This document shows positions 1 to 16,170 of a DNA stretch of 64,000 bases, piece after piece (the stretch's first letter is position 1; each line of letters begins with the position of its first letter). The notes under the pieces were generated by a model. It had not been told where the DNA came from. It was given only the letters and a program-made list of their open reading frames with translations, and made no database searches. A program made the translations under genes and the position numbers. Source of the DNA: Sediminibacterium sp. (GTDB lineage: Bacteria; Bacteroidota; Bacteroidia; Chitinophagales; Chitinophagaceae); assembly GCA_017537025.1 (NCBI GenBank), contig JAFWCB010000008.1, positions 1-64,000 on the forward strand. Direction: 5' to 3'.

Positions 1-1
1 A

Positions 2-271
2 ACAATAATATTTTGGAAGGACAAGGAAAGATTAAAATCTATTTTAGTCCTGACAACTCTTTTGTTAAGTATCGCAGGAACAGTCATAGCATTTAGAGGA
101 AACGTTCCAATTAATCAACAACTACAAAGCCTACAACCAGGTACAATACCAGTTAATTGGGAGCAAATTAGAAATGAATGGTTAGGTTACCATTTTTGGA
201 GAAACTTAACAGCTATAATTGGCTTTGTAAGTTTTATGTTGACATTTTTTATCACTTCTAAGAAAAAATAA
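2..271 (+). CDS. DUF1772 (anthrone oxygenase-like) membrane protein, C-terminal part
   Basis: The frame is open from the window edge, so the 5' end is missing; a TTG at 62 is internal and not the real start. The visible 89 residues hold one hydrophobic segment, a loop containing GNVPIN and a WEQIRNEW...HFWR stretch, then a second hydrophobic segment and a lysine-rich tail. The GNVP(I/L)N loop followed by W...W..H..R is characteristic of the DUF1772 family, whose members include fungal anthrone oxygenases. The bacterial role is unknown. The gene ends 14 bases before the first attC-like site and is the first, partial cassette of the array. Confidence 0.7.
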   Translation, partial: TIIFWKDKERLKSILVLTTLLLSIAGTVIAFRGNVPINQQLQSLQPGTIPVNWEQIRNEWLGYHFWRNLTAIIGFVSFMLTFFITSKKK

Positions 272-285
272 TTGAATACATAGAA

Positions 286-495
286 TTACTGCCACCAACA
301 TGGGGTTTGCTGCAAGTGTGGCTTGACGTTGTAAGCATCAGCAGCAAATTGTTACTCAGCTTCAGTACCGGCTTGACGGAATGCTATTTGGCTTTTGGTT
401 TTTAACTTGTACTTTTAGTTCATCAATCAGCAGCGGTTCCGGGCGGAGGGAATACTAATTCCACACCTGCAGCAAGCCCTGTTCGTTAGCTGTAA
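286..495 (+). repeat. attC-like site 1 (family B)
   Basis: The left arm (286-312, core TGCCACCAAC) and right arm (470-495, core GTTAGCTGTAA) pair as an imperfect inverted repeat: GGGGTTTGCTG on the left matches AGGGCTTGCTG when the right arm is reverse-complemented. The centre of about 155 bp resembles sites 6 and 7, sharing the CAGCGGTTC/CTCCGGGC and CTCAGCTTC pieces. It separates cassette 1 from the lipoprotein cassette. Confidence 0.7.
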
Positions 496-521
496 CAATA
501 TTTTAAATCAAGTATTATCAA

Positions 522-1052
522 ATGAAATTATCCACTTTTCTTTTTTGCCTAGTTACACTAATTGCTTGCACCAATCCACCAATTCCTGAGAACAAAATCT
601 CTATACAATCGGATCAAAAAATATTTGACTCACTTCTAAACAAATATATAAGAGACACCCTGTCACAACAATTCGAAAACCCTTCATCTTTTCAGTTCAT
701 AAGCTATAATAATGATACCATAAACGGCAGTAAATCAGACAAAAAAATGTTTGAGATGCTTTCTGAATCCAATAAAGTGATTGATTCTCAAAAAAAAGTA
801 TTTATTGCTGACTTAACAATGGACTCGATCCAAAAAATGACCTCAATCTCTCAGCTTGACAGCCAATTAGCGCAAAATTTAAATGACTTATTAGAATTAA
901 AGAAACATCCAACAAGACCTGATTCAATAATTCAAATAAATGTTACCGTAAATTTTAAGATTAAGGATAAGAAAGGAAAAGAAACATTTAACAATTCCGT
1001 ACTTATATATTATCCAAAATTCAAAACATTTTCAGAGATTATAGGAGAGTAG
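522..1052 (+). CDS. Putative lipoprotein of unknown function (cassette 2)
   Basis: The 176-residue product begins MKLSTFLFCLVTLIAC, a lipoprotein signal peptide with lipobox LIAC and predicted lipidation at Cys16. The rest is hydrophilic, rich in Asn, Ser, Lys and Asp, and has no recognisable motif. The last third has a beta-like pattern (IQINVTVNFKIKD). I do not recognise the family. It is a single-gene unit between attC-like sites 1 and 2. The cassette begins TTAGCTG and its own 3' core is CAGCTAAC, which are complementary. No promoter was evident, so expression may depend on upstream readthrough. Confidence 0.65.
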   Translation: MKLSTFLFCLVTLIACTNPPIPENKISIQSDQKIFDSLLNKYIRDTLSQQFENPSSFQFISYNNDTINGSKSDKKMFEMLSESNKVIDSQKKVFIADLTMDSIQKMTSISQLDSQLAQNLNDLLELKKHPTRPDSIIQINVTVNFKIKDKKGKETFNNSVLIYYPKFKTFSEIIGE

Positions 1053-1242
1053 AATTGTATGCAGCTAACATTGCACAGGCAAAAGTTGGGCTTTTGTACT
1101 TGGCCAATCAGCTGTTGTCCCGCCTTGGCGGGATGACCAATTTTCAGTAATTTGGCTTTAGTCCCGACGTGGCGGGATGGCCAAGCGGGCGACAGAATAT
1201 ATCCGTCCAACCTTCGCAAAGCCCTGACCGTTATGTGCAATT
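1053..1242 (+). repeat. attC-like site 2 (family A, two nested palindromes)
   Basis: Left core GCAGCTAAC (1061-1069) is followed by GGCAAAAGTTGGGC; the right arm CCAACCTTCGCAAAGCCC ends in core GTTATGTGC (about 1230-1238). Inside are two short palindromes of type GTCCCGCC..GGCGGGAT (1117-1137 and 1161-1178), with TCAGTAATTTGGCTTTAG between them. The same internal modules recur in sites 8, 9, 11 and 13. Minus-strand open frames here are by-products of the repeat. Confidence 0.75.
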
Positions 1243-1263
1243 ACCGAGACAATCTAACTGACA

Positions 1264-2067
1264 ATGGCAATATTTAATCCTGACTGGTCTTTTATAATTA
1301 ACTTTTTTGGAATTTTTCTTGCGATACTTCCCTTGATTCTTGGAATCAAACTTTCCTTTTCACGGGAGCTTGGACTAATTCATTGGAATAACTTCACCTC
1401 GCATGAAAAGATACCAGAAAGAAATGATATTGTTAAGCAGATACATAGAATCCAGCTAATTTTTCAAAACCACGGTAAAGAGGTCATTTATGAAAAAGAT
1501 ATAGTGACTCCTATAGAAATTGACTTAGGAGTTGTGGACTCAATTTCAAAGGTAACATTTGAGAGTAATTGCAAGTTCAATAGCGTAGATTTCAAAATTG
1601 TTGGCAGCAAGATTTTTTTTACTTTCAACTTTTTAGAATACAACAAGTACATAAAAACCCATTTCGATTACTTCTCGGATGAAAAAGTTGAAGCAAAAAT
1701 TAAAGGGAAAATTATAGGTGGGAACGAGCTGGATTATAAAATTGAAACAGATAATAGATGGGACTCATATTTCGTAGGAAAGAAGAATGCAGATGCAAAC
1801 TTTTTAGTATTCCCTTTCGTTACTGTCGGACTTTTTATAACTATTGGTTTTTTGTTTCTTAGAATGTTCAATATTAATCCAGACACGTTGCTTGAAATAA
1901 TTCAGAAGTTTAATAGGGATGCATTTCTATTGTTGTTCGTTGGATTAGTTTTGGCAGCCATTTGCATAGCCTTAGGAATACGCATTAAAAGACTGTTTAT
2001 TCCATTTGTTATATACGCCGAAAAAGAAAAGAACTGGTACTTGAAAAAAGAGTTTAAAAGCGCATAA
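1264..2067 (+). CDS. Membrane protein of unknown function (cassette 3)
   Basis: The 267-residue protein has an N-terminal hydrophobic segment (residues about 8-30), a central soluble region of about 140 residues with beta-rich character, and two C-terminal transmembrane segments (about 180-200 and 215-238), ending in a basic tail. I recognise no family motif. The stop codon lies inside the RYYYAAC core of the next site (CGCATAAC), the tight packing usual for cassette genes. The cassette begins TTATGTGC, and its own 3' core GCGCATAAC is nearly the exact complement, so it looks like one intact unit. Confidence 0.65.
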   Translation: MAIFNPDWSFIINFFGIFLAILPLILGIKLSFSRELGLIHWNNFTSHEKIPERNDIVKQIHRIQLIFQNHGKEVIYEKDIVTPIEIDLGVVDSISKVTFESNCKFNSVDFKIVGSKIFFTFNFLEYNKYIKTHFDYFSDEKVEAKIKGKIIGGNELDYKIETDNRWDSYFVGKKNADANFLVFPFVTVGLFITIGFLFLRMFNINPDTLLEIIQKFNRDAFLLLFVGLVLAAICIALGIRIKRLFIPFVIYAEKEKNWYLKKEFKSA

Positions 2068-2262
2068 CAGCGTTTTTCTGCTTTGCTGCCTGATGGAATA
2101 AACATCAACAACAGAACGCTAATCATCGGTATATTCGGCTGACACAACGCTGATGAATAAATGAATAAAACTTGTACATTAGTTTTTCATTAGGCTTCTG
2201 TTCCAGACTGACCGAACACAGAATTTCAGCACAGCAGAAAGCCAATGAACGTTAGCTGCACA
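2060..2262 (+). repeat. attC-like site 3
   Basis: Left arm GCGCATAACAGCG with TCTGCTTTGCTG pairs with the right arm CAGCACAGCAGAAAGCC...GTTAGCTGC, the right core lying near 2251-2259. The spacer of about 150 bp lacks the GTCCCGCC palindromes and resembles family B only loosely. It overlaps the 3' end of the preceding gene by 8 bp. Confidence 0.7.
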
Positions 2263-2288
2263 AATTTATTTTCTCAATTTTCGGAGTT

Positions 2289-2309
2289 TACTTACCTTTG
2301 GCGTAAGTA
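2289..2309 (+). promoter_or_regulatory. Promoter and operator of the higBA cassette
   Basis: TACTTAC and GTAAGTA form a perfect 7-bp inverted repeat with a 7-bp spacer. The spacer contains most of TACCTTTG (2293-2300), a full match to the Bacteroidota -7 consensus TAnnTTTG. It lies 16-36 bp upstream of the higB ATG. A dyad over a core promoter in front of a toxin-antitoxin pair is the expected place for HigA autorepression. No convincing -33 TTG was seen. Confidence 0.6.
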
Positions 2310-2324
2310 TCGAAAATTACAGGC

Positions 2325-2606
2325 ATGATTCTTTCATTCGGCTCTAAAGACACTCAGAAAATATGGGACGGCGAAAGAGTCAAAAAAATACCTAACGAGA
2401 TTCAGGAAATTGGTAGGCGCAAGCTCAGAATGCTGAACAACTCCCAAAATCTCACAGATTTGCAGATACCTCCATCCAATAAGCTGGAGAAACTAAAAGG
2501 AAATCTAAAAGACTTTTATTCAATCCGGATAAATAACCAATGGCGTATCATTTTCAAATGGGCGTCCGGTAACGCTTCCGATGTTGAAATCATAGATTAC
2601 CACTAA
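2325..2606 (+). CDS. higB: HigB-family toxin (RelE superfamily mRNA interferase)
   Basis: The 93-residue protein matches the HigB pattern: an N-terminal IQEIGRRKLRMLNN helix, the PPSNKLEKLKG motif before the beta-sheet core, and the YSIRINNQWRIIFKW signature of ribosome-dependent RelE-fold endoribonucleases. Such toxins cleave mRNA in the ribosomal A site and are neutralised by HigA. The gene is directly followed, after 10 bp, by the antitoxin gene in toxin-first order, as is usual for higBA. This cassette has its own promoter, unlike most others in the array. Length is normal for the family. Confidence 0.85.
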   Translation: MILSFGSKDTQKIWDGERVKKIPNEIQEIGRRKLRMLNNSQNLTDLQIPPSNKLEKLKGNLKDFYSIRINNQWRIIFKWASGNASDVEIIDYH

Positions 2607-2616
2607 ATGTTAACAA

Positions 2617-2916
2617 ATGAAACGGCTCAGAAATATCCATCCCGGCGAAATCTTACTGGAGGAGTTCCTTCTCCCACTTGGCATTTCCGCGTATAGGCTT
2701 TCCAAAGACACTGGTATTCCTCAGCCAAGGATTTCTGCTATCATTAAAGGCAATCGAAGAGTAACTGCGGATACTGCCTTACGGTTCTCCAAATATTTTG
2801 GTAACTCGGCTAAGTTCTGGCTGGGGTTACAAGACGACTTCGACATCGAGGAAGAAAATCAAGCACTCAAATCTGCTTTAGCTTCTATTCCTAGGTTCAG
2901 CATCTCAGCCGCATAA
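2617..2916 (+). CDS. higA: HigA-family antitoxin (XRE-type HTH)
   Basis: The 99-residue protein opens with RNIHPGEILLEEFLLPLGIS, the HigA/VapI signature, followed by a helix-turn-helix (residues about 22-60: SAYRLSKDTGIPQPRISAIIKG) and FSKYFGNSAKFWLGLQ, characteristic of this family. It should bind HigB and repress the operon through the dyad at 2289-2309. The stop codon sits in the left core of attC-like site 4 (CCGCATAAC). Both genes form one toxin-antitoxin cassette. Confidence 0.85.
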   Translation: MKRLRNIHPGEILLEEFLLPLGISAYRLSKDTGIPQPRISAIIKGNRRVTADTALRFSKYFGNSAKFWLGLQDDFDIEEENQALKSALASIPRFSISAA

Positions 2917-3096
2917 CATCGGCTTTGCAAAAGTTGGGCAACATGAAGTCGCCCATTGGGCTTTGGTAATTCTACTCATCTTTTGTAATTTGTCCGTGCC
3001 CGGACAAAAGGTATCCCGCAGAGCGAGACAGGCAGGTCAAGCAGGCTTTGGGATCTCACCCGCCCAACCTTCGCAAAGCCTGGGCCGTTGTGTGTG
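2909..3096 (+). repeat. attC-like site 4
   Basis: Left arm CCGCATAACATCGGCTTTGCAAAAGTTGGGC pairs closely with the right arm GCCCAACCTTCGCAAAGCC followed by core GTTGTGTG (3087-3094). The centre includes a separate palindromic piece around GTCCGTGCCCGGACAAA. This gap of about 260 bp before the next gene holds the site and nothing else recognisable. Confidence 0.75.
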
Positions 3097-3179
3097 ATGC
3101 AACCGAACATTTTAATAATTTAAAGTAAACGACAGAAAATACAGAAGAAGAACATTTAGATACTCCGACAAACATTCAA

Positions 3180-3995
3180 ATGGAAATTTTTCCTAACGAA
3201 CTCACCCCTTCTACTAACACAGAGACTATTACCCAAAATCAACAAACAGAAAATATGGAAGTACATAAACATCCACATCATGTAACGCATAAAAAGAAAT
3301 GGACAGAGTACCTGTTAGAATTCTTAATGCTATTTTTAGCTGTGTTTCTTGGTTTTTTTGCAGAAAATGTAAGAGAACACAAAGTTGAAAAGGAGCGGGA
3401 AAAACAATTTGTTACATCATTAATAAATGACTTACGATTAGATATGAACTGGCTGGATACAGTTAACAACTCTATAAAATTGAAAATACAGAATATTGAT
3501 TCAGCCCTTGAGTTATTGACTACTACAAAAAATAATGAAATGCCGGTTAAAGCTTACTTACAACTTCAAAGAGCACAGGTTCAAATTATGTTTTTCCCAA
3601 ACAATGGCACTATCACACAATTAAAAAGTTCAGGCGGTATGCGTCTTATCAGCAAAAGAGATGTAGTCGATTCGATTGAAGGTTATGACCGTCTAATGCG
3701 GAGATTAGAAGTCAGAAGAGATAGAAGCAATCAACTCAATGATGAATTTTCGGTAGCGTTAAATAAAGCTGCCATCGGCAAAGATTTATTTAGTTCACTC
3801 TATGATTCAGTTCTTTTCAAAAAACCGGTTATCAAACAAACCATAGGATTGAATACTCAATTTGCGAATGAGTTAATTAATACAAGCCTATCATTGCGAT
3901 TACGAGCCATTTCGGATACAAAAGCAAATTCTCAGACAAAGGAAGATGCGGGGCGTCTGATTCAGTTTATTAAAAAGGAATATCACCTCGAATAA
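3180..3995 (+). CDS. Single-pass membrane protein of unknown function (cassette 5)
   Basis: The product is 271 residues from the first ATG, or 246 from an ATG at 3255 giving MEVHKHPHHVTHKKKW. The second start fits better, because that His-rich segment leads straight into the only transmembrane segment (about 18-38 from it: EYLLEFLMLFLAVFLGFFAEN). A charged helix REHKVEKEREKQF and a long, mostly helical periplasmic or cytoplasmic region follow. I have the impression of a common but uncharacterised Bacteroidota family with this N terminus; no catalytic motif is visible. The stop lies beside a truncated attC-like site. Confidence 0.6.
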   Translation: MEIFPNELTPSTNTETITQNQQTENMEVHKHPHHVTHKKKWTEYLLEFLMLFLAVFLGFFAENVREHKVEKEREKQFVTSLINDLRLDMNWLDTVNNSIKLKIQNIDSALELLTTTKNNEMPVKAYLQLQRAQVQIMFFPNNGTITQLKSSGGMRLISKRDVVDSIEGYDRLMRRLEVRRDRSNQLNDEFSVALNKAAIGKDLFSSLYDSVLFKKPVIKQTIGLNTQFANELINTSLSLRLRAISDTKANSQTKEDAGRLIQFIKKEYHLE

Positions 3996-4038
3996 GCCTG
4001 CCTAAAGCCTGCGGCAAGCCGTTGAACATTAGCGGCAA
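3991..4038 (+). repeat. attC-like site 5, internally deleted
   Basis: Only about 48 bp remain between the stop of cassette 5 and the next unit. The right arm GGCAAGCC...CATTAGCGGC is clear and matches the right ends of sites 1 and 6. The left arm and centre are missing, and the core has A for G (ATTAGCG). Loss of one arm should stop this site folding, freezing cassettes 5 and 6 together. Confidence 0.5.
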
Positions 4039-4091
4039 GTATGGACTAACACAAACGTAACTCTAAATAACAAAATTCAAATATTTAAAGT

Positions 4092-4679
4092 ATGACAGAG
4101 AAATCATCAAGCGAATCACTAAATAAGTTAGAAACATTCAGACAAGCACAAACGGCTATGCGCAATGGTTATGCTAACGGTTCTATAGGTATAATCGTTT
4201 CAGGACTCATTTGGCTGACATCTGCAATTATTGCATATCAATATTCCGCCCCAAAAGCAATTTGGGTACTCTTCATTGGAGGAATGTTCATCTACCCTTT
4301 GAGTATGTTAATTAGTAAGTTAATTGGACTAGCTGGCACACATAATAAAGGGAATGAATTGGGAAACTTAGCTATGGAGGGAACGATATGGATGATTATG
4401 TGCATACCACTTGCTTTTGGACTTTCATTGCAACAAGTAGAATGGTTTTTTCAAGCTATGCTTTTAATTATTGGTGGAAGATATTTGACATTTAATACAA
4501 TCTATGGCAATAAGATTTATTGGGTGTTAGGTGCAATATTAGGGCTTTCAGCATACTTGTTATATAATTTTAAGGCTCAATCTTTTGAGACATTATTGAC
4601 AGGTTCGTTTATTGAAATCTCATTTGGACTTTTTATGTTTATCTCATTTCGTAGAGACAACAAAACAACTTTGAAATAA
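4092..4679 (+). CDS. Multi-pass membrane protein, DUF7010-like (cassette 6)
   Basis: The 195-residue protein has a charged N terminus (MTEKSSSESLNKLETFRQAQ) and about six hydrophobic segments (residues roughly 30-50, 58-76, 95-112, 116-130, 137-155, 165-185). The stretch MRNGYANGSIGIIVSGLIWL resembles the start of an uncharacterised small integral membrane family (DUF7010 from memory), but I am not certain. No active-site motif is visible. A site with a degraded core precedes it and a full attC-like site follows 11 bp after the stop. Confidence 0.6.
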   Translation: MTEKSSSESLNKLETFRQAQTAMRNGYANGSIGIIVSGLIWLTSAIIAYQYSAPKAIWVLFIGGMFIYPLSMLISKLIGLAGTHNKGNELGNLAMEGTIWMIMCIPLAFGLSLQQVEWFFQAMLLIIGGRYLTFNTIYGNKIYWVLGAILGLSAYLLYNFKAQSFETLLTGSFIEISFGLFMFISFRRDNKTTLK

Positions 4680-4689
4680 AGCGGTTTAC

Positions 4690-4911
4690 AAAAATACCTG
4701 CCACCAACATGGGGTTTTGCGCATACTGGGGCATACGAACAGCGTCTCTCATCTTTCCCAGCTCTAGGCAGCAGTGGTTCGGGCGGACACTTAATCTTCA
4801 ACTTTGGAATTAATTATTAACTTCAAATCATTAACCAGCTTTCGCAAGCCGGGGAAGACACAGCAGTAATTCCCAGTAGTGCAAAGCCCTAAAATGTTAG
4901 CGGTAATTTTA
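4690..4911 (+). repeat. attC-like site 6 (family B)
   Basis: Left arm AAAATACCTGCCACCAACAT with GGGGTTTTGC...ATACTGGG pairs with right arm CCCAGTAGTGCAAAGCCC followed by core GTTAGCGGTAATTTT. The left core TGCCACCAAC is identical to that of site 1. At about 220 bp it is the longest site in the array. Confidence 0.7.
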
Positions 4912-5005
4912 CTGACGGTCATTGTTAAAACAATTCCCGGCAAAAGAAGAGGGAAAATTAAAAAACAACTTCAAAATATCAAATCAATTAAACCAATTTT
5001 AATAA

Positions 5006-5851
5006 ATGAAAAAAGGCTTCATACTATATGCAATTCTTTTGCTTGTTCAGTCCTTCTGCCTTGCACAAGGTCAGTCTAAAAAGAGCACCGTTTATGGCAA
5101 TAACAATCGAAATGGCAAATATTTACCTGTCGGAAACATAAAATTGTATTATGAGATTTATGGGAAGGGCGAGCCTTTATTACTGATTCACGGCAATGGT
5201 GGCTCAATTAAAGATTTTAAGTATCAAATTCCTTATTTCTCGAAGTATTATAAAGTCATAGCGGTAGACAGCAGGGCTCAGGGCAAATCGGTTGATACAA
5301 GCGCTAGGCTTAACTACGAAATGATGGCAGATGATTTTAATGCCTTACTAACACATCTTAACATAGATTCGGCTAATGTGATTGGTTGGAGCGATGGAGG
5401 TATTAATGGCTTGTTACTTGCTATTCGTCACCCTGAAAAGGTAAAAAAATTAGCGATTACGGGAGCCAATTTAATACCTGATACGGCAGTATTAAATCCT
5501 GCCGCAGTAAAATTGACTACTGATGAACTTGTCAAACTAAGAACAGAAAAACAAACGCCTGAAACACGAAATACTATAAAACTGTTGCACATGATGGAAA
5601 TTGAGCCCAATATTCCATTAACGGATTTACAGAAAATCAAATGTCCGGTGTTGGTCATAGGCGGAGATTTTGACGCTATAAAGCCTTCGCACACTTTACA
5701 AATATTTGAAAATATTCCACGGGCAAACCTTTGGATTCTCCCAGCGTCCGGTCATGCTACTTTGCAGCGCTATAAAAATGAATTTAACCAAAAAGTGAGA
5801 CACTTTTTCACTCACTCGTATCTAAAACCAAAATGGAATGATTGGGATTAA
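5006..5851 (+). CDS. Secreted alpha/beta hydrolase (cassette 7)
   Basis: The 281-residue protein has a Sec signal peptide (MKKGFILYAILLLVQSFCLAQ) and an alpha/beta hydrolase fold. Visible are the oxyanion-hole motif LIHGNGG (60-66), the nucleophile elbow GWSDGG with Ser129, the acid in GGDFDAIKP (Asp223) and the catalytic His250 in PASGHAT. The substrate cannot be predicted. The ATG at 5006 is preferred because it begins the signal peptide. The cassette starts TTAGCGGT and its own 3' core is ACCGCTAAC, a perfect complement, marking a complete mobile unit. About 100 bp of AT-rich spacer lies between the stop and the site. Confidence 0.8.
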   Translation: MKKGFILYAILLLVQSFCLAQGQSKKSTVYGNNNRNGKYLPVGNIKLYYEIYGKGEPLLLIHGNGGSIKDFKYQIPYFSKYYKVIAVDSRAQGKSVDTSARLNYEMMADDFNALLTHLNIDSANVIGWSDGGINGLLLAIRHPEKVKKLAITGANLIPDTAVLNPAAVKLTTDELVKLRTEKQTPETRNTIKLLHMMEIEPNIPLTDLQKIKCPVLVIGGDFDAIKPSHTLQIFENIPRANLWILPASGHATLQRYKNEFNQKVRHFFTHSYLKPKWNDWD

Positions 5852-5950
5852 TAAAAAATTTGTACTTGATTGAATAAGAATAGGTCTGCGCTTATACTGT
5901 GATATTTTGACTACGGAAATGAGATAAGGAAAAAAGAACATGATAAAAAC

Positions 5951-6152
5951 GACCGCTAACACGGAGTTTGCTGCTATGCTGGCAGACGAATATATTCTCA
6001 GCTTCATATCGATATCAGCCCATATCCAGCCGACGGAATTCTATCAACTTTTGTTGTTATCTTCAATTTCAGGTTTTCAATTGGGCAGCGGCTCCGGGCT
6101 GGTATTATAAAAAATCAGCACAACAGTAAGCTCTGAACTTTGGTGGCAATTG
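5951..6152 (+). repeat. attC-like site 7 (family B)
   Basis: Left arm ACCGCTAACACGG with GTTTGCTGCTATGCTGG pairs with right arm CAGCACAACAGTAAGCTC...TTTGGTGGCA. The centre carries GAATATATTCTCAGCTTC and GGCAGCGGCTCCGGGC, modules shared with sites 1 and 13. The right core (TTTGGTGG) departs from GTTRRRY and is complementary to the TGCCACCAA cores of sites 1 and 6. Confidence 0.65.
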
Positions 6153-6159
6153 AAAATAT

Positions 6160-6720
6160 ATGAAAGAACGAAATTCTTTTGACGTAATTATTCGAAGAAA
6201 AATTCCCTATTTAACTTCCTTTCTTTTCTACTTATTAACGTTTTTCACAATTGTATTTCTTGTTCTTGGAATTGTATTTCTTCCTACCGAACATCAATCA
6301 GATGAAATGAAAGTAGCTTATTTCATTTTAGTCGTTCCGAATATTATCAAAGTAGCATTATTCATATCCGGAAGTGGTTTTTTAGTTCTATTAATACTTT
6401 ATACAATTGCTCGCCGTTACAATCCGGCGATCATCACTTTTCAAAGTGAAACAATCAAAATAATTGGGCAAAAAATAAATATCGAAATCCCTATAAATAC
6501 AATTTCAAAAGTTTACTGCATGGATTCGAAAAATCTTGAAGGTGAATCAAGGCAAAAAATGACAATTTATTTTGAACTCAAAAGCATTAAGGAAATTAGA
6601 GTCAGACTTAAAGATTATTCTCAGGTTGACCAATTTATGGAAGGACTCATGCAATATGAAGATCTGAATTTCAAGTTTTATGACTTTGATGTTAGTCCAA
6701 ATATCGAAGATGAAGAGTAA
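6160..6720 (+). CDS. Two-TM membrane protein of unknown function (cassette 8)
   Basis: The 186-residue protein has two transmembrane segments (about 17-40 and 62-84) joined by a short loop, followed by a soluble beta-rich domain (PAIITFQSETIKIIGQKINIEIPINTISKVYC...) and an acidic tail ending EDEE. A TM hairpin followed by a beta sandwich recalls bacterial PH-domain membrane proteins, but that is inference from shape only. The stop codon abuts the next attC-like site directly. The edges of this unit are not complementary, so it may be a chimera of two cassettes. Confidence 0.6.
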   Translation: MKERNSFDVIIRRKIPYLTSFLFYLLTFFTIVFLVLGIVFLPTEHQSDEMKVAYFILVVPNIIKVALFISGSGFLVLLILYTIARRYNPAIITFQSETIKIIGQKINIEIPINTISKVYCMDSKNLEGESRQKMTIYFELKSIKEIRVRLKDYSQVDQFMEGLMQYEDLNFKFYDFDVSPNIEDEE

Positions 6721-6858
6721 ATGTGGCTAACAGTGGCTTTGCAAAAGACGGCTTTTGCACTCAGCCCTCCAGCAGTTGTCCCGCCTTGGCTGGATGACCG
6801 AGCGAGCGACAGAATATATCCGTCCGACCTTCGCAAAGCCCTAGACGTTATGGGCTAT
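6721..6858 (+). repeat. attC-like site 8 (family A, shortest full site)
   Basis: Left arm TGGCTAACAG with GGCTTTGCAAAAGACGGC pairs with right arm CCGACCTTCGCAAAGCCC followed by core GTTATGGGC (6847-6855). At about 138 bp it is within the usual attC size range. One nested palindrome of the GTCCCGCC type lies at 6778-6798. An ORF that begins here with ATG is an artefact of the site. Confidence 0.8.
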
Positions 6859-6874
6859 GTATTATTAGGTTTCG

Positions 6875-6882
6875 TATCTTTG
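6875..6882 (+). promoter_or_regulatory. Candidate -7 promoter element of mntA-hepT
   Basis: TATCTTTG matches TAnnTTTG fully and ends only 4 bp before the mntA ATG. With normal -7 spacing, transcription would begin at or next to the start codon, giving a leaderless or nearly leaderless mRNA. No -33 TTG is apparent. Confidence 0.45.
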
Positions 6883-6886
6883 AAGT

Positions 6887-7180
6887 ATGACACAGTTAGA
6901 ATCCATAAAAAATTTACTGATTAGACTTAAACCAGAGCTAATAGAAAAGTATTCTATCAGCTCGATTGGTCTTTTTGGATCAGTTGTGCATAATGATTTT
7001 TCACCAACATCAAGCGACATTGATATTATTGTAGATTTTTCAAAGCCTATTGGAATAGAATTTATTGATTTGGCTGATTATCTTGAACAGAAGTTTAAAA
7101 GAAAAATCGATCTTGTTTCTAGAAACGGAATCAAGCAGAAATATTATCAAGCCATCGAATCAGATATCATTTATGTCTAA
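6887..7180 (+). CDS. mntA: MntA-type minimal nucleotidyltransferase antitoxin
   Basis: The 97-residue protein carries the minimal nucleotidyltransferase signature: GLFGS (Gly31-Ser32) followed by DID (Asp44, Asp46) and a beta strand ending in IIVDF. Proteins of this size paired with HEPN proteins are antitoxins of the type VII MntA-HepT system, which inactivate the toxin by AMPylating a tyrosine. The reading frame overlaps the hepT start by 8 bp, indicating translational coupling. The cassette begins TTATGGGCT and its own 3' core is AGCCCATAAC, a perfect complement. Confidence 0.85.
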   Translation: MTQLESIKNLLIRLKPELIEKYSISSIGLFGSVVHNDFSPTSSDIDIIVDFSKPIGIEFIDLADYLEQKFKRKIDLVSRNGIKQKYYQAIESDIIYV

Positions 7181-7508
7181 AAGATCCACAGACCTGCTAA
7201 TTGACGATATCCTTGATAGTGGACAAAAAATACTTGATTATACAGTTGGCTTCACTTTGGAGCAATTTTCAGCTGACTCAAAAACAGTAGATGCTGTAAT
7301 CAGAAATTTCGAAATTATAGGAGAAGCAGCGAACAGATTACCCGATGATTTTAAGGAGACACACTCAGATATCGACTGGCATAAAATACGAGGCTTTAGA
7401 AACAGAATAGTTCACGACTATTTCGGAATAGATTATTCTATTGTTTGGGTAATAAAGGAGACATTTCTTCCTAAAATGATTGAGCAGTTAATAAAACTTC
7501 AAGGCTAA
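7173..7508 (+). CDS. hepT: HepT-type HEPN ribonuclease toxin (DUF86)
   Basis: The 111-residue product from the ATG at 7173 has the HEPN catalytic motif RX4HXY as R76-NRIV-H81-D-Y83; Tyr83 would be the AMPylation site in the MntA-HepT mechanism. The preceding FEIIGEAANRLP is the conserved DUF86 helix. The frame is open further upstream (from 7065), but that part lies inside mntA and encodes no family sequence, so 7173 is the start. Order, overlap and size are as in known antitoxin-toxin pairs of this type. Confidence 0.87.
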   Translation: MSKRSTDLLIDDILDSGQKILDYTVGFTLEQFSADSKTVDAVIRNFEIIGEAANRLPDDFKETHSDIDWHKIRGFRNRIVHDYFGIDYSIVWVIKETFLPKMIEQLIKLQG

Positions 7509-7515
7509 CTTACAC

Positions 7516-7684
7516 AGCCCATAACAAAAAACTTTACGCAAGTTAGGCTTTCAGCAATGGCCCATCAGCTTTGCTGTTTCAATCAACTTCAGTAATTTGG
7601 CTTTAGTCCAGCCATGGCGGGATGGCCAAGCCAGCGACAGGAACAACTCCCCCGCCTTTCGCAAAGCCCAGAACGATGCAAGCC
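7516..7684 (+). repeat. attC-like site 9 (family A)
   Basis: Left core AGCCCATAAC (7516-7525) with TTTACGCAAGTTAGGC pairs with right arm CCGCCTTTCGCAAAGCCC and the divergent core CGATGCAAGCC. Internally it shares TTCAGTAATTTGGCTTTAG and one nested palindrome (7606-7627) with sites 2 and 11. Confidence 0.7.
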
Positions 7685-7710
7685 ATTTATAAAATTTAAT
7701 ATGACAAAAA

Positions 7711-8250
7711 ATGAAAAGACTCTTTATTGAAAATTTAAAGACAGCTGTTGTATTTTTCTTATTCATTTTTTTAAGTAGCACTATAATTACTTTTTTTATG
7801 TCGAAGAATCACCTATTAGACATTGTTAGTTCAAAATTGGAATTTGCAGCAGGATATACCTTCTTAGTAATATTATTTATGCTTTTTTATCAAATAATTC
7901 TAATAATGACAAGTAAAATTGATTTGAGAGACTATTCTATTTTTCCAAAACAACTCGTGTCATTTGTTGTAGACAAAACATTTAATGAAACGAAAGACAT
8001 AATTGAAAATATTTTACCAAATAAATTAAAATCAAATGGCTTTCAATATGACGATAAAAATAATCTTTTCAAGACAAAGACAGCAGCAAGCTTAATTTCT
8101 TGGGGTGAAAATATCGAAATAAAAGTGACAGAATTAGAAAATGCAAAAAGTCAAATATCAGTATTTAGTAAACCAGTATTAAGGACTACTTTAGTTGACT
8201 ACGGTAAAAGTAGTTTAAATATTCAAAAAATAAAGTTAGCACTTAACTAA
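7711..8250 (+). CDS. Membrane-anchored protein of unknown function (cassette 10)
   Basis: The 179-residue protein has two N-terminal hydrophobic segments (about 9-30 and 46-68), then a mixed, lysine-rich soluble domain with alternating beta strands (IEIKVTELENAKSQISVFSKP). I do not recognise a family. The ATG at 7711 directly precedes the first hydrophobic stretch; a nearby ATG at 7700 lies in another frame that closes quickly. The unit's 5' edge CGATGCAAGCC and its 3' core GGCCTGCAAC are nearly complementary, so it appears to be one cassette with a non-canonical core. Confidence 0.6.
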   Translation: MKRLFIENLKTAVVFFLFIFLSSTIITFFMSKNHLLDIVSSKLEFAAGYTFLVILFMLFYQIILIMTSKIDLRDYSIFPKQLVSFVVDKTFNETKDIIENILPNKLKSNGFQYDDKNNLFKTKTAASLISWGENIEIKVTELENAKSQISVFSKPVLRTTLVDYGKSSLNIQKIKLALN

Positions 8251-8251
8251 A

Positions 8252-8395
8252 ACGGCCTGCAACAAAGCATTTAAGCAAAGTCGGCGGACTGGAACGTAAT
8301 TGCTCATTTCTTATTCGCTATTAAACTTTTTCAATAACTTCAACAAAATATTTTCAGCTTCCGCCTCTGCTTAAATGCGAGAACGATAGTCACAA
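8252..8395 (+). repeat. attC-like site 10
   Basis: Left arm GGCCTGCAAC...GCATTTAAGCAAAGTCGGCGG matches the reverse complement of right arm CCGCCTCTGCTTAAATGCGAG. This is one of the best paired arms in the array. Both outer cores (CTGCAAC and CGATAGTC) depart from the consensus. Confidence 0.7.
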
Positions 8396-8409
8396 TTATA
8401 ACATATCAT

Positions 8410-8871
8410 ATGTATAAATTTATTTTGCTTCCGTTTACCATCTTTTTTTACTTTATAAGTCTTGCTCAAACGGACACAATCTATGCAGAATTACAAATTA
8501 AGTCTTTTTCCTATGAAGGAAAGGAAATCAAATTTGAAACTCCTAAAGTAGTAATCTTAAAAAAGATGGGATTTAGTGATATTGTGAGTTTAGGTAATGT
8601 AAATGAAAAAGAAATCGGAATAGGATCGGAAATTCTTAAAAGCTCATTCGGTAATGATTCAATATTTGTATTTGGCATAGCCTTTTTTCTTAGAGAAAAT
8701 GGGCATTGGAAAATTGGCAGTGTAATTCAGTATCAACAAAAGAATTTTATAAAAATTTCTGACTGGGCCCAAATAAATAATAAAAACTTTAGCTTGGCAG
8801 CTGCTTCATTAAATAAACATAATGGTGAATTTGAGATATCTTATCGGGAGCGATTTTATATTTTAAAATAA
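8410..8871 (+). CDS. Secreted protein of unknown function (cassette 11)
   Basis: The 153-residue protein begins with a Sec signal peptide (MYKFILLPFTIFFYFISLAQ, cleavage after LAQ). The mature part is beta-rich, with repeated charged strands (IYAELQIKSFSYEGKEIKFETPKVVIL and the C-terminal EFEISYRERFYIL), suggesting a small periplasmic or surface beta-sheet domain. I recognise no family. The stop is immediately followed by attC-like site 11. Confidence 0.6.
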   Translation: MYKFILLPFTIFFYFISLAQTDTIYAELQIKSFSYEGKEIKFETPKVVILKKMGFSDIVSLGNVNEKEIGIGSEILKSSFGNDSIFVFGIAFFLRENGHWKIGSVIQYQQKNFIKISDWAQINNKNFSLAAASLNKHNGEFEISYRERFYILK

Positions 8872-9033
8872 CTGCAGCTAATACCATCATTACAAAAGGC
8901 AGACTGTTGTCCCGACTTGGCGGGATGACCAAACTTCGGTAATTTGGCTTCAGTCCCGCTATAGCGGAATGGCAAAGCAAACAGTAGGAACTCTTTTGCT
9001 AACCTTAGCCAAGCCATAAACCGTTATATGCAA
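8872..9033 (+). repeat. attC-like site 11 (family A, two nested palindromes)
   Basis: The left arm contains GCAGCTAATAC and AAAAGGCA; the right arm CTAACCTTAGCCAAGCC ends in core GTTATATGC (9023-9031). Two nested palindromes (8909-8930 and 8953-8973) flank GGTAATTTGGCTTCAG, exactly as in site 2. The left arm is more decayed than the right. Confidence 0.65.
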
Positions 9034-9074
9034 CCCTTAATACATATTTATAATATTTTTTGAAATTAATTTAT

Positions 9075-9536
9075 ATGAAGCATCAAAGTATTCAAACAGT
9101 AGAAGATATCAAGAAGCATTATCAGCCAATTTATAATGTTAATGATAGGCACAAAGAAAAATTATCAACCCTTGATGGAATAGCTTTATGGATTACTGTG
9201 CATGTTGGCAGTATGGGATTTTTTATTATAATTTTTCTTTGGACTATTATTTGGTTGACCTGGAATACCCTTGCTCCAACTTCACTAAGATTCGACCCCT
9301 TTCCGGGCTTTGTACTATGGTTATTTATTTCCAATATGATTCAAATATTTCTTATGCCTCTAATTATGATTGGACAAAATTTACAAGCAAAACACTCCGA
9401 AATGAGAGCGGAACAAGATTTTTTAATAAATAAAAAAGCGGAAAACGAAATTGAAATGATCTTAAAACATTTAGAAAATCAAAACGAACTTATCCTTAAA
9501 ATTATTCACAAACTTGGAGATGCTGAGACTAAGTAA
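9075..9536 (+). CDS. DUF1003 family membrane protein (cassette 12, first gene)
   Basis: The 153-residue protein shows the DUF1003 pattern: a soluble N terminus, a first transmembrane segment with GSMGFFIIIFLWTIIWLTWN, the RFDPFPGFVLWLFISN loop, a second transmembrane segment, then SQN/GQN-type NLQAKHSEMRAEQDFLINKKAE and a coiled C-terminal helix. Family function is unknown. The ATG at 9075 is chosen; a TTG 15 bp upstream would add only a hydrophobic pentapeptide. It forms a two-gene cassette with the lipoprotein gene that follows after 12 bp. Confidence 0.8.
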   Translation: MKHQSIQTVEDIKKHYQPIYNVNDRHKEKLSTLDGIALWITVHVGSMGFFIIIFLWTIIWLTWNTLAPTSLRFDPFPGFVLWLFISNMIQIFLMPLIMIGQNLQAKHSEMRAEQDFLINKKAENEIEMILKHLENQNELILKIIHKLGDAETK

Positions 9537-9548
9537 TCTTTTAGTTAC

Positions 9549-10364
9549 ATGAAAACGCTAACTGCAATTTTTATCACTATCATACTTTTAGCGTGTACAG
9601 AAAAGCGAAATACAGCGTCTGCTCCCTTCCAAAGCGAGCCTGCTCCTAGTAATAAATTGGCAGACAGTTTGCCTGATTTTTCAACGATAAACTTTTTTGC
9701 AGTTTACAAATTGTCTCCAAAAACAATGGCTATTGTCATCCCTCTACACGACAAAGATGTAGCACCACCTACTATCTTCGATACATTGGTCAAACAGCTG
9801 AAATATCCCGAGCGTGGAAGCCTAATGCCAATTGGAAGCAGCTATGTTGATACTAGTGGATTGTACAAGATTTTGAAAGTTGACAGCCTTTCAGGAAGAG
9901 TAAAGCAGCATATTGCGTCTGTCTATTTTGTGTATGGTACCAAAGGTGTTGCGAAAGTTATTATAAGCGAAGTTCTGCTTGCCTTAGACGAATGTAAAAC
10001 AAACTTTATTGCCCTAACCATTTCATATTTCGATACCACTCATTATGGTATGCCGATACTTTGTTCAGATAAACCCCTTAAGATTGAATACAAGGGAAAT
10101 TATGCAGATGTGGAAAAACAAATAGTGCAGTTAGAAGGAGAGCAAAAAGGGGATTATGACTACTTACCTAAAATTCCAACAAAAGTTTTTGGACATGCTG
10201 GTTCTATGTTCTTCGCTTTCAGTGACGATTTTCTTTGGGAGAGAGCCGAGGGAGAGCAGAAATGCCTATTTCCTTCCCGGTACATTTTTAAGCAAGAAAA
10301 AAATGGACCTTTAAAGCGATACTGGGTAGAAAGCCTAGATTTGTTTGGCATTCCGTGCGACTAA
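9549..10364 (+). CDS. Putative lipoprotein of unknown function (cassette 12, second gene)
   Basis: The 271-residue product has a lipoprotein signal (MKTLTAIFITIILLAC, lipobox LLAC, Cys16). The mature region has no motif I recognise; it contains several aromatic, beta-type strands and a cysteine pair (residues near 150 and 170). The short 12 bp gap after the DUF1003 gene suggests co-transcription. Its stop codon sits inside the left core of a shortened attC-like site (GTGCGACTAAC). Confidence 0.65.
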   Translation: MKTLTAIFITIILLACTEKRNTASAPFQSEPAPSNKLADSLPDFSTINFFAVYKLSPKTMAIVIPLHDKDVAPPTIFDTLVKQLKYPERGSLMPIGSSYVDTSGLYKILKVDSLSGRVKQHIASVYFVYGTKGVAKVIISEVLLALDECKTNFIALTISYFDTTHYGMPILCSDKPLKIEYKGNYADVEKQIVQLEGEQKGDYDYLPKIPTKVFGHAGSMFFAFSDDFLWERAEGEQKCLFPSRYIFKQEKNGPLKRYWVESLDLFGIPCD

Positions 10365-10404
10365 CAATAGTGCCAGCCTTCGTAAAGCCCAGAACGTCGT
10401 GCAT
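10355..10404 (+). repeat. attC-like site 12, internally deleted
   Basis: The left core GTGCGACTAAC is followed almost at once by the right arm CCAGCCTTCGTAAAGCCC and core AACGTCGTGC. The centre and left arm are gone, leaving about 50 bp. As at site 5, this should link two cassettes permanently. Confidence 0.5.
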
Positions 10405-10435
10405 AGTGCCACAGGACACTTTAAATAACAAAGAA

Positions 10436-10945
10436 ATGAAAGAGTTAAAATTTATTATTGGACTACTAACACTTGTGACAATATTCGCTTGTAGTACCAA
10501 GACACAACCGAATGACAGTAAGTTCCATGGAATGTGGCGTCTAGATAAATTTGAAGCGTATGACAGTTCAAAAAAAGCATGGTCTGACGATACTATGAGA
10601 ATTGGTTGGAATGGATATATACTTTATGACGGACAAGGCCATATGGGCGTTCACTTAACACCCAAAGGGTATAAAGATTTTGACACCAATAAAAATATTG
10701 ACAGCTTAAATCGTGACGAACTAGTAGCCTTGACCAAGTTTTATAAATCAAACTTCGTTTATTTTTCAGACTACATCCTAACCGAAAGCACTGTTGAACA
10801 CAAACGACTTTCAGCAACTGAACCTCAGAATTGGGGAAAGTCATTGACACGTGATTTTGAATTTAAACAGGACACATTGGTTTTGACAGCTCATGAAATT
10901 ATGGCGGGAAGGAAAATAAGACTTCGTTGGATTAAATTGAAATGA
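10436..10945 (+). CDS. Lipocalin-like lipoprotein (cassette 13)
   Basis: From the ATG at 10436 the 169-residue product begins MKELKFIIGLLTLVTIFAC, a lipoprotein signal with Cys19. The open frame extends to 10355, but that part lies in the attC-like site. The mature domain has FHGMWRLDKFEAYD, then GYILYDGQGHMGVHL, the pattern of the lipocalin-like family (PF13924 type), ending with a strand KIRLRWIKL. Such proteins probably bind small hydrophobic ligands; the ligand is unknown. It is the last gene of the recognisable array. Confidence 0.7.
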   Translation: MKELKFIIGLLTLVTIFACSTKTQPNDSKFHGMWRLDKFEAYDSSKKAWSDDTMRIGWNGYILYDGQGHMGVHLTPKGYKDFDTNKNIDSLNRDELVALTKFYKSNFVYFSDYILTESTVEHKRLSATEPQNWGKSLTRDFEFKQDTLVLTAHEIMAGRKIRLRWIKLK

Positions 10946-10957
10946 GTGCTGTCTTAC

Positions 10958-11170
10958 GAATGCACTAAGCATAGCAACAACTTGTCGAAAGTTGGGCTAA
11001 CGAATATAGCCCATCAACTATAGCCCGCCATAGTGGGATGGCCAAGCCTGGGCGTTAGACAGAATTCTAATCTCCAGCAGATTATATTCTCAGCTTTTGT
11101 ACATAACTTCATCAACATATTTTCTACCGGCAGCGGTTGCAGGTAAACCTAATGCTAATTCCTAACCGCC
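10958..11170 (+). repeat. attC-like site 13 plus decayed second site (array end)
   Basis: The first part has left core TGCACTAAG, the arm GTCGAAAGTTGGGC, one palindrome (11021-11046) and a canonical right core GTTAGAC (11054-11060). The rest (about 11061-11170) repeats family B central pieces: ATTATATTCTCAGCTTTTG, ACATAACTTCATCAACATATTTTC and CGGCAGCGGTTGC, without clear arms. It therefore looks like a broken second site, with the array decaying toward its distal end. Confidence 0.6.
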
Positions 11171-11192
11171 CTTCATTAAAAACTCAAATTCC

Positions 11193-16019: not shown

Positions 16020-16170
16020 TGAAAAAGGGGCTTGCAAGATTGGTTTAGCGTTATTGGTGCATACGATCTAATCCTCAAAAGTTATGATTCTAATAAACTT
16101 TTGTGCTAACTTCAACAAGTGTAGGATAAATACTGCTACATCGCCAATACATCTACATTAGCTGTAATAT
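16020..16170 (+). repeat. Probable attC relic in the 16.0-16.2 kb gap
   Basis: The gap of about 210 bp before the M14 peptidase gene contains GGGGCTTGCAAG, then CTTTTGTGCTAACTTCAACA resembling the site 13 piece CTTTTGTACATAACTTCATC, and ends with CATTAGCTGTAATAT, which closely matches the right edge of site 1 (CGTTAGCTGTAACAAT). Together these suggest an eroded attC-like site far outside the intact array. No other feature was seen here. Confidence 0.45.

What the first reader, a model, noticed from the sequence alone, without database searches (positions are those of the whole stretch)
1..11170. Integron-like cassette array in a Bacteroidota chromosome without an integrase in view
Thirteen same-strand units each end in an inverted-repeat site with RYYYAAC- and GTTRRRY-like cores, and the stop codons of several genes lie inside the left core. 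This is seen directly. Knowledge of integrons makes attC arrays the best explanation. Such arrays are far less described in Bacteroidota than in Vibrio or Xanthomonas, and nearly all products here are uncharacterised.
Basis: partly seen in the sequence, partly recalled or inferred. Interest (0 to 1): 0.9.

Follow-up and report, generated by a model that had tools for sequence, protein, structure and literature searches.

The report
Integrons of Bacteroidia with unusual integrase
The stretch is a row of movable gene cassettes of the integron type, and its relatives suggest that many bacteria of this class move such cassettes with an enzyme that lacks the part used to define integron enzymes.

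Summary
The array is real. A covariance model built without sites from this genome or its sister genome finds 10 of the 13 claimed sites. Each cassette's end pairs with its own start: 107 of 117 adjacent pairs in related genomes match at 9 or more of 10 positions. That marks units that were once circular. No such integrase was found in the held genome. Of 80 relatives of a sister genome's recombinase, 44 have attC sites in their flank (32 of them two or more) and 27 are cut off by a contig end. Close relatives with the same integrase part within a few bases of the predicted insertion point GTT. The recombinases form their own clade and lack about 40 residues, the IntI-defining insertion. In 345 genomes of the class, canonical IntI occurs in 1, attC sites in 155, this family in 169. 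Cassette ends carry a split arm (10 bp, mismatch, 4 bp) not seen in canonical arrays. Verdict: a partly decayed piece of a widespread integron lineage for which I found no description. Enzyme activity is inferred.

The parts
2..271 (+). 3' part of the first cassette's gene (Anthrone_oxy-like); the start of this cassette is at the ends of contigs C21 and C25
   Evidence: Pfam PF08592 E 1.5e-6; window and contig C29 starts share 141 nt, C21 and C25 ends share 141 nt; start/end pairing 14 of 15
291..493 (+). attC site A
   Evidence: R3 E 2.1e-30
522..1052 (+). cassette gene, no Pfam match
1061..1238 (+). attC site B
   Evidence: R3 E 6.9e-8
1264..2067 (+). cassette gene, no Pfam match; stop codon inside R'' of site C
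2060..2259 (+). attC site C
   Evidence: R3 E 4e-24
2325..2916 (+). HigB-like toxin and HTH antitoxin pair, one cassette; stop inside R'' of site D; relative cassette in G011 (77% over 709 columns)
   Evidence: Pfam PF05015, PF01381; blastn
2909..3095 (+). attC site D
   Evidence: R3 E 6.9e-14
3180..3995 (+). cassette gene, weak DUF6090 match (below its cut-off)
3990..4040 (+). attC remnant E (left part missing)
   Evidence: by eye only; no model hit
4092..4679 (+). cassette gene, DUF7010
4700..4904 (+). attC site F
   Evidence: R3 E 1.4e-12
5006..5851 (+). cassette gene, alpha/beta hydrolase
5952..6147 (+). attC site G
   Evidence: R3 E 1.6e-23
6160..6720 (+). cassette gene, no Pfam match
6723..6855 (+). 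attC site H
   Evidence: R3 E 2.9e-9
6887..7508 (+). nucleotidyltransferase and HepT-like pair, one cassette; about 90% identical cassette twice in G017, homology stopping with the cassette and part of its site
   Evidence: Pfam PF01909, PF01934; blastn
7517..7683 (+). attC site I
   Evidence: R3 E 4.9e-4
7711..8250 (+). cassette gene, no Pfam match
8255..8393 (+). attC site J
   Evidence: R3 E 1.6e-9
8410..8871 (+). cassette gene, no Pfam match
8874..9031 (+). attC site K, degenerate
   Evidence: R1 only, which was trained on it; not found by R3 at E<=1
9060..10364 (+). DUF1003 gene and a gene with no Pfam match
10357..10405 (+). attC remnant L
   Evidence: by eye only; no model hit
10436..10945 (+). 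lipocalin-like cassette gene
10982..11179 (+). attC site M, partial; last site of the array
   Evidence: R1 E 6.7e-4; R3 11051-11162 E 1.5e-4

Best explanation
Window 1-11179 is the 3' end of an integron cassette array. Each unit is one gene or operon plus an attC site. In relatives a tyrosine recombinase gene lies beside the array, mostly just upstream on the same strand, and an attI site follows it. The proposed mechanism: the enzyme excises a unit by recombining the folded bottom strands of two attC sites, which gives a circle, and inserts circles at attI (weakly conserved, read by eye as TTGCGTATATTTAnGT|GTT), cutting at the G|TT of GTTRRRY. The enzyme belongs to a clade that lacks the IntI-specific insertion and has an extra N-terminal domain. 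Its sites carry a longer outer arm than canonical attC: 10 bp, a mismatch that is usually A.C on the top strand and so T.G on the bottom strand, then 4 bp. In this genome no such enzyme was found and the window's pairings are partly lost, so the window array is probably stranded or acted on in trans. Shown by sequence: sites, pairing, synteny in relatives, breakpoints near attI. Inferred: catalysis, strand use, role of the N-terminal domain.
For: Sites: R3 unbiased hits. Pairing of the two ends of a cassette: 338 matches against 183 +/- 9 in 2000 shuffles, 51 pairs; 1105 against 548 +/- 17 in 500 shuffles, 117 pairs in 31 loci. Association: 80 loci chosen by integrase alone, with attC hits (R2, E<=0.001): downstream on the same strand 37, upstream on the other strand 7, cut by a contig end 27, none 8, other 1; 32 of the 44 have two or more hits (counted). 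Contig ends within 300 bp downstream 21 of 80, upstream 0 of 80. First-cassette start matching the first attC's end at 9/10 or better in 31 of 36 loci, median 161 bp after the stop; 23 of 36 beat every control query. L117 and L118 (identical integrase rows) are identical from just before the integrase stop through GTTAGC, then unrelated; L145/L155 part after GTT. Insertion missing: 57-61 residues between KGxKDR and HxLRH in 78 of 79 ORFs (one lacks the motif), against 100 in 20 of 20 IntIs. Own clade of 77, support 100/100. Survey of 345 genomes: enzyme and attC 110, enzyme only 59, attC only 45, neither 131; Fisher p 1e-13. Bottom strand folds better in 81 of 107 rebuilt sites.
Against: No recombination was assayed. 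No such integrase was found in this genome (94.74% complete), and the place syntenic to the G017 integrase holds hydrogenase-like genes (by eye) instead. 45 of 155 attC-positive genomes show no enzyme and 59 of 169 enzyme-positive genomes show no attC at the thresholds used; some of the latter may be other related recombinases. Twelve of the 44 linked loci have a single attC hit. Three loci with enough flank have none (L108, L158, L163). In the attI search 13 of 36 loci do not beat the best control query, and three of the 31 good starts (L111, L176, L182) follow what looks like an attC right arm, not the motif. The motif reaches only about 1 bit at its best position. The window's own pairing is weak and a strict chain finder sees no chain there. 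The 27 cut-off loci are untestable.
Confidence: 0.85

Rival explanations
1. Canonical integron array whose IntI gene was lost or lies elsewhere (ordinary CALIN), with no new enzyme involved.
For: Sites look like classical attC; CALINs are common (PMC9024848, passages). Integrons are listed for the phylum in general (PMC8618304 and PMC9668308, passages).
Against: Canonical IntI in 1 of 345 genomes of the class, and that one has no R2 site at E<=1e-4; attC sites in 155 of 345. Another recombinase lies beside attC sites in 44 of 80 loci. The outer arm differs from that of canonical arrays of the same phylum.
Confidence: 0.07
2. The host Xer recombinases, or a recombinase supplied in trans by plasmids, move the cassettes; the neighbouring gene is a passenger.
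For: G000 has only two PF00589 proteins, which I take for its Xer pair, yet has arrays. A plasmid of Chryseobacterium carries a related recombinase with two sites.
Against: The recombinase gene sits next to the first cassette, mostly in one orientation (37 of 44), in many genera. Host Xer proteins would not explain this.
Confidence: 0.06
3. The repeats are not recombination sites but transcription terminators or REP-like repeats that happen to follow genes.
For: They lie between same-strand genes and fold.
Against: Cassette-end pairing, breakpoints near GTT, shared cassettes whose homology stops with the unit.
Confidence: 0.02

Closest known systems
Integrons with IntI (class 1 and sedentary chromosomal integrons, TIGR02249)
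   Same: attC with RYYYAAC/GTTRRRY cores, cassettes in one orientation, attI-like site beside the integrase gene, cassette boundaries at GTT, bottom strand folds better, C-terminal SPLD tail
   Different: Integrase lacks about 40 residues between KGxKDR and HxLRH and scores below the TIGR02249 cut-off; extra N-terminal domain in the model; gene mostly in the same orientation as the cassettes; outer arm split 10 + 4 bp instead of about 11-12 continuous bp
CALIN (attC clusters without integrase, PMC9024848)
   Same: The window fits the definition: at least two attC sites, no integrase
   Different: In relatives the clusters do have an integrase, of a kind that an IntI search is not expected to report
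Integron-like subgroup of tyrosine recombinases (PMC8138268) and NCBIfam NF040815 'site-specific tyrosine recombinase/integron integrase'
   Same: The clade probably falls in this broad group; [quoted passage not shown] NF040815 is the best NCBIfam hit of the G017 protein, below its cut-off (199 of 220 bits)
   Different: No cassette array or attI was linked to insertion-less members in the passages seen; I did not place the clade in that paper's tree
Homology-independent cassette uptake in Riemerella anatipestifer (PMC13148043, section 11 read)
   Same: Gene plus 27 bp 5' and 140 bp 3' sequence integrates without homology; the 3' part folds like attC; a bacterium of the same class (recalled)
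   Different: The enzyme is not identified there; I did not examine that genome

Membership tests
Integron (canonical) | Array of attC sites bounding cassettes | tested here: met
   weaker in the window itself
Integron (canonical) | attI beside the integrase gene | tested here: met
   In relatives: cassette start near the integrase stop in 31 of 36 loci, of which three follow an attC-like arm instead. In this genome attI-like motifs occur without an integrase
Integron (canonical) | IntI integrase with the IntI-specific additional domain | tested here: not met
   Missing in 78 of 78 measurable ORFs; below the TIGR02249 cut-off; none found in G000
Integron (canonical) | Cassettes gained or lost by site-specific recombination at G|TT | tested here: met
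   Breakpoints in L117/L118 and L145/L155; sequence evidence only
Integron (canonical) | Recombination of single-stranded bottom-strand attC by the integrase | not testable with these tools
   Only folding preference was computed
CALIN | Two or more attC sites without integrase nearby | tested here: met
   the held genome has two PF00589 proteins, on other contigs
CALIN | Detected by the IntegronFinder attC model | not testable with these tools
   That model could not be run; Rfam gave no gathering hit

The most novel reading that the evidence does not exclude
The class Bacteroidia has its own integron lineage, present in up to about half of its genomes. Its integrase lacks the domain held to be essential for integron recombination, carries another N-terminal domain instead, and reads a split attC arm (10 bp, mismatch, 4 bp) that singles out the bottom strand. 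It would also be the missing enzyme behind homology-free cassette uptake in Riemerella.
Probability: 0.75. Interest if true: 0.92.

Novelty: new variant of a known kind. Interest (0 to 1): 0.88.

Why it matters
Integrons are commonly defined and searched for by IntI. If this reading holds, a whole class of common bacteria runs integrons with an enzyme that such searches miss, so its cassette pool and gene flow are uncounted. The enzyme offers a natural test of how folded single-strand sites can be recombined without the IntI insertion. It gives a testable answer to an open question in Riemerella, where cassettes integrate without homology by an unknown mechanism.

Tried and rejected
RNAalifold on the first 10 sites gave no structure, so the arms were paired by hand and checked (71.7% of cells paired against 65.0 in shuffles, reached in 0 of 500). 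Rfam gave no gathering hit in the window. The NF011946 and TIGR02249 searches at loose thresholds ring in every genome tried, the 14 controls included; only strict thresholds or cut-offs are used. A tet(X3) plasmid with a related recombinase upstream shows no R2 site at E<=1, so a cassette origin of that unit is not claimed. A first chain finder counted both strands and had background (4 chance pairs in 30 kb); a stricter one replaced it. The window site 16030-16165 has no matching cassette start. One first-attC distance (6817 bp, L121) is an artefact of my listing order; the nearest site there is 14012.
Full report
1. What is in the window. Positions 1-11179 hold same-strand genes separated by sites of about 130-205 bp with cores near RYYYAAC and GTTRRRY. 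Ten sites gave an alignment and model R1. R1 finds 28 sites at E<=0.1 in the genome: 11 in the window, 10 on contig C25, 4 on C29, and one each on C22, C6 and C23:658696. To avoid circularity, R3 was built from 130 sites of 25 named loci without this genome or G017. It finds 10 of the 13 window sites at E<=0.001, misses site K, and gives one weak extra hit at 16030.

2. The cargo is of a kind usual in integrons (recalled): a HigB/HTH pair, a nucleotidyltransferase/HepT pair, a lipocalin-like protein, an alpha/beta hydrolase, DUF1003, DUF7010 and several genes with no Pfam match. The nucleotidyltransferase/HepT cassette occurs twice in the one-contig genome G017 (same genus) at about 90% identity; homology stops with the cassette and part of its site.

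3. The pairing test. If cassettes were circles, the sequence after GTT at the start of a cassette must pair with the sequence before AAC at its end, although the two lie far apart, and the two halves of one site need not pair. In the window alone the effect is modest (p=0.018). In 51 adjacent pairs of G000, G017 and G011 it is strong (z 16.5; 65 of 75 model hits kept, 3 partial hits and 7 opposite-strand shadows dropped). In 117 pairs from 31 loci (174 model hits, none dropped) it is stronger still (z 33.5; 107 of 117 match at 9 or more of 10). The window's pairings are weaker than those of G017 or contig C25, which suggests decay.

4. Where the integrase is. G000 has two PF00589 proteins, which I take for its Xer pair; they stand apart in the tree. 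G017 has a third recombinase, 384 aa, just before its roughly 60-kb array of 24 sites; its first cassette starts about 130 bp after the stop and pairs 10 of 10 with the first site's end. One scan of named genomes for relatives of such enzymes gave 80 loci, the best 80 of 151. attC hits were then sought with R2, whose training search included 29 of these loci; R1, trained on the window alone, gives much the same picture. Hits lie downstream on the same strand in 37, upstream on the other strand in 7, elsewhere in 1, nowhere in 8; 27 are cut by a contig end within 1.5 kb. Thirty-two of the 44 have two or more hits. Five of the 8 without have under 1.1 kb upstream, the side where sister rows carry sites. 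Hosts with hits include Sediminibacterium, Ferruginibacter, Agriterribacter, Ilyomonas, Pollutibacter, Parafilimonas, Mucilaginibacter, Flavobacterium, Mesoflavibacter, Wocania, Raineya and Chryseobacterium.

5. attI. In 31 of 36 loci a start of the first cassette is found at 9/10 or better, median 161 bp after the integrase stop. Against control queries from the other loci, 23 of 36 beat every one. Three of the 31 (L111, L176, L182) follow what looks like an attC right arm. The bases before GTT share a weak motif, at most about 1 bit per position in the ungapped count. Two pairs of relatives give natural experiments. L117 and L118 have identical integrase rows in the tree and 96% identity over 5.8 kb; they are identical from just before the integrase stop to ...TTATTGTTAGC and then unrelated. 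L145 and L155 part after GTT.

6. The enzyme. Between KGxKDR and HxLRH it has 57-61 residues in 78 of 79 ORFs (one lacks the motif; the 80th locus, L114, has no intact frame), against exactly 100 in IntI1 and 19 other IntIs. Seventy-seven such proteins form one clade (100/100), apart from 20 IntIs (100/100); long branches make deeper joins unsure. The AlphaFold2 model (mean pLDDT 85, pTM 0.57, 18 sequences) shows an extra N-terminal alpha/beta domain. Pfam does not name that domain above cut-off in 4 proteins tried (DUF5710 at E 0.013 and 0.12). Foldseek puts XerA 5hxy and IntI 2a3v first. PMC8138268 calls the IntI insertion essential for integron function (passage).

7. How common. In 345 genomes of the class: canonical IntI 1, attC 155, the new family (A8, E<=1e-70) 169, both of the last two 110. 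In 395 genomes of the phylum, TIGR02249 at E<=1e-60 is found in 107, all but one labelled outside the class. The R2 surveys used stricter filters and scored 6-7 candidates per genome, so site counts there are lower bounds.

8. A new site feature. With a model-free chain finder (chains of 3 or more cassettes), canonical arrays (34 cassettes in 4 of 14 loci) pair continuously: 0.94, 0.76, 0.50 at positions 10-12, then background. New-type arrays (87 cassettes in 11 of 11 loci) give 0.75, 0.17, 0.77, 0.77, 0.74, 0.67, 0.18 at positions 10-16; G017 (19 cassettes, 3 of 4 loci) agrees. Six stretches without arrays (82 kb, two with a lone site) give no chain, and neither does the window. On the gene strand, position 11 is A at the start in 104 of 108 pairs with 8/10 or better, and A.C in 76 of 108, the reverse in 0. 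On the bottom strand A.C becomes a T.G wobble, and the bottom strand of the rebuilt site folds better in 81 of 107.

9. The left edge. The window starts at a contig end. C21 end and C25 start share 141 bases, and C23 start (the window) and C29 start share 141 bases. The start on C21 and C25 pairs with the end of the window's first cassette at 14 of 15 positions, the one mismatch being position 11; among eight other window ends only site F also reaches 10 of 10 (12 of 15). So a duplicated cassette most likely broke the assembly, and the left neighbour is C21 or C25. Both show attI-like motifs and no integrase; at the C25 head the motif's GTT pairs 10 of 10 with the first site's end. The place syntenic to the G017 integrase (dehydrogenase, tRNA-Met) holds what reads as hydrogenase genes.

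10. In print. Integrons are listed for the phylum in general (PMC8618304, PMC9668308, passages). IntegronFinder 2.0 reports only In0 earlier and then a complete integron in Salinibacter for Bacteroidetes (PMC9024848, passages). A survey required the additional domain to call intI (PMC2426708, passages). I found no description of this lineage in ten searches of open-licence full texts; most listed papers were seen as listings only, and subscription papers and preprints are not held. PMC13148043 (section 11 read) reports cassette-like integration in Riemerella by an unknown mechanism. PMC6598227 (passages) held nothing on this.

Noticed in passing
window 16030-16165: Weak attC-like hit after a cupin-like gene, beyond the claimed array; no matching cassette start.
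   Followed up: partly
G000 C21:264459, C25:125, C25:16627, C23:657793: Copies of an attI-like motif (about TGCGTATATTTAAGT|GTTG) beside cassettes or lone sites without any integrase, one next to tRNA-Ala; they look like secondary insertion sites.
   Followed up: partly
L187 (Acinetobacter indicus plasmid NZ_CP045132.1): A recombinase related to the wider group lies 190 bp upstream of tet(X3), same strand; no R2 attC site there.
   Followed up: partly
L191, L192 (Myroides and Tenacibaculum plasmids): Related recombinases directly followed by IS91-family transposase genes; the Myroides stretch also holds two attC-like sites on the other strand.
   Followed up: no
L190 (Chryseobacterium plasmid NZ_CP041688.1): A related recombinase with two attC sites downstream on the same strand, on a plasmid.
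   Followed up: partly
L161 (Treponema MAG WQWD01): A member of the integrase clade with one attC-like site in a record labelled Treponema: transfer or binning error.
   Followed up: no
L092 (G026:C12): A 536-residue relative whose N-terminal region seems to repeat the W..WY stretch (by eye).
   Followed up: no
phylum sample: Canonical IntI is common in other classes of the phylum (106 of the 107 positive genomes are labelled outside the class).
   Followed up: partly
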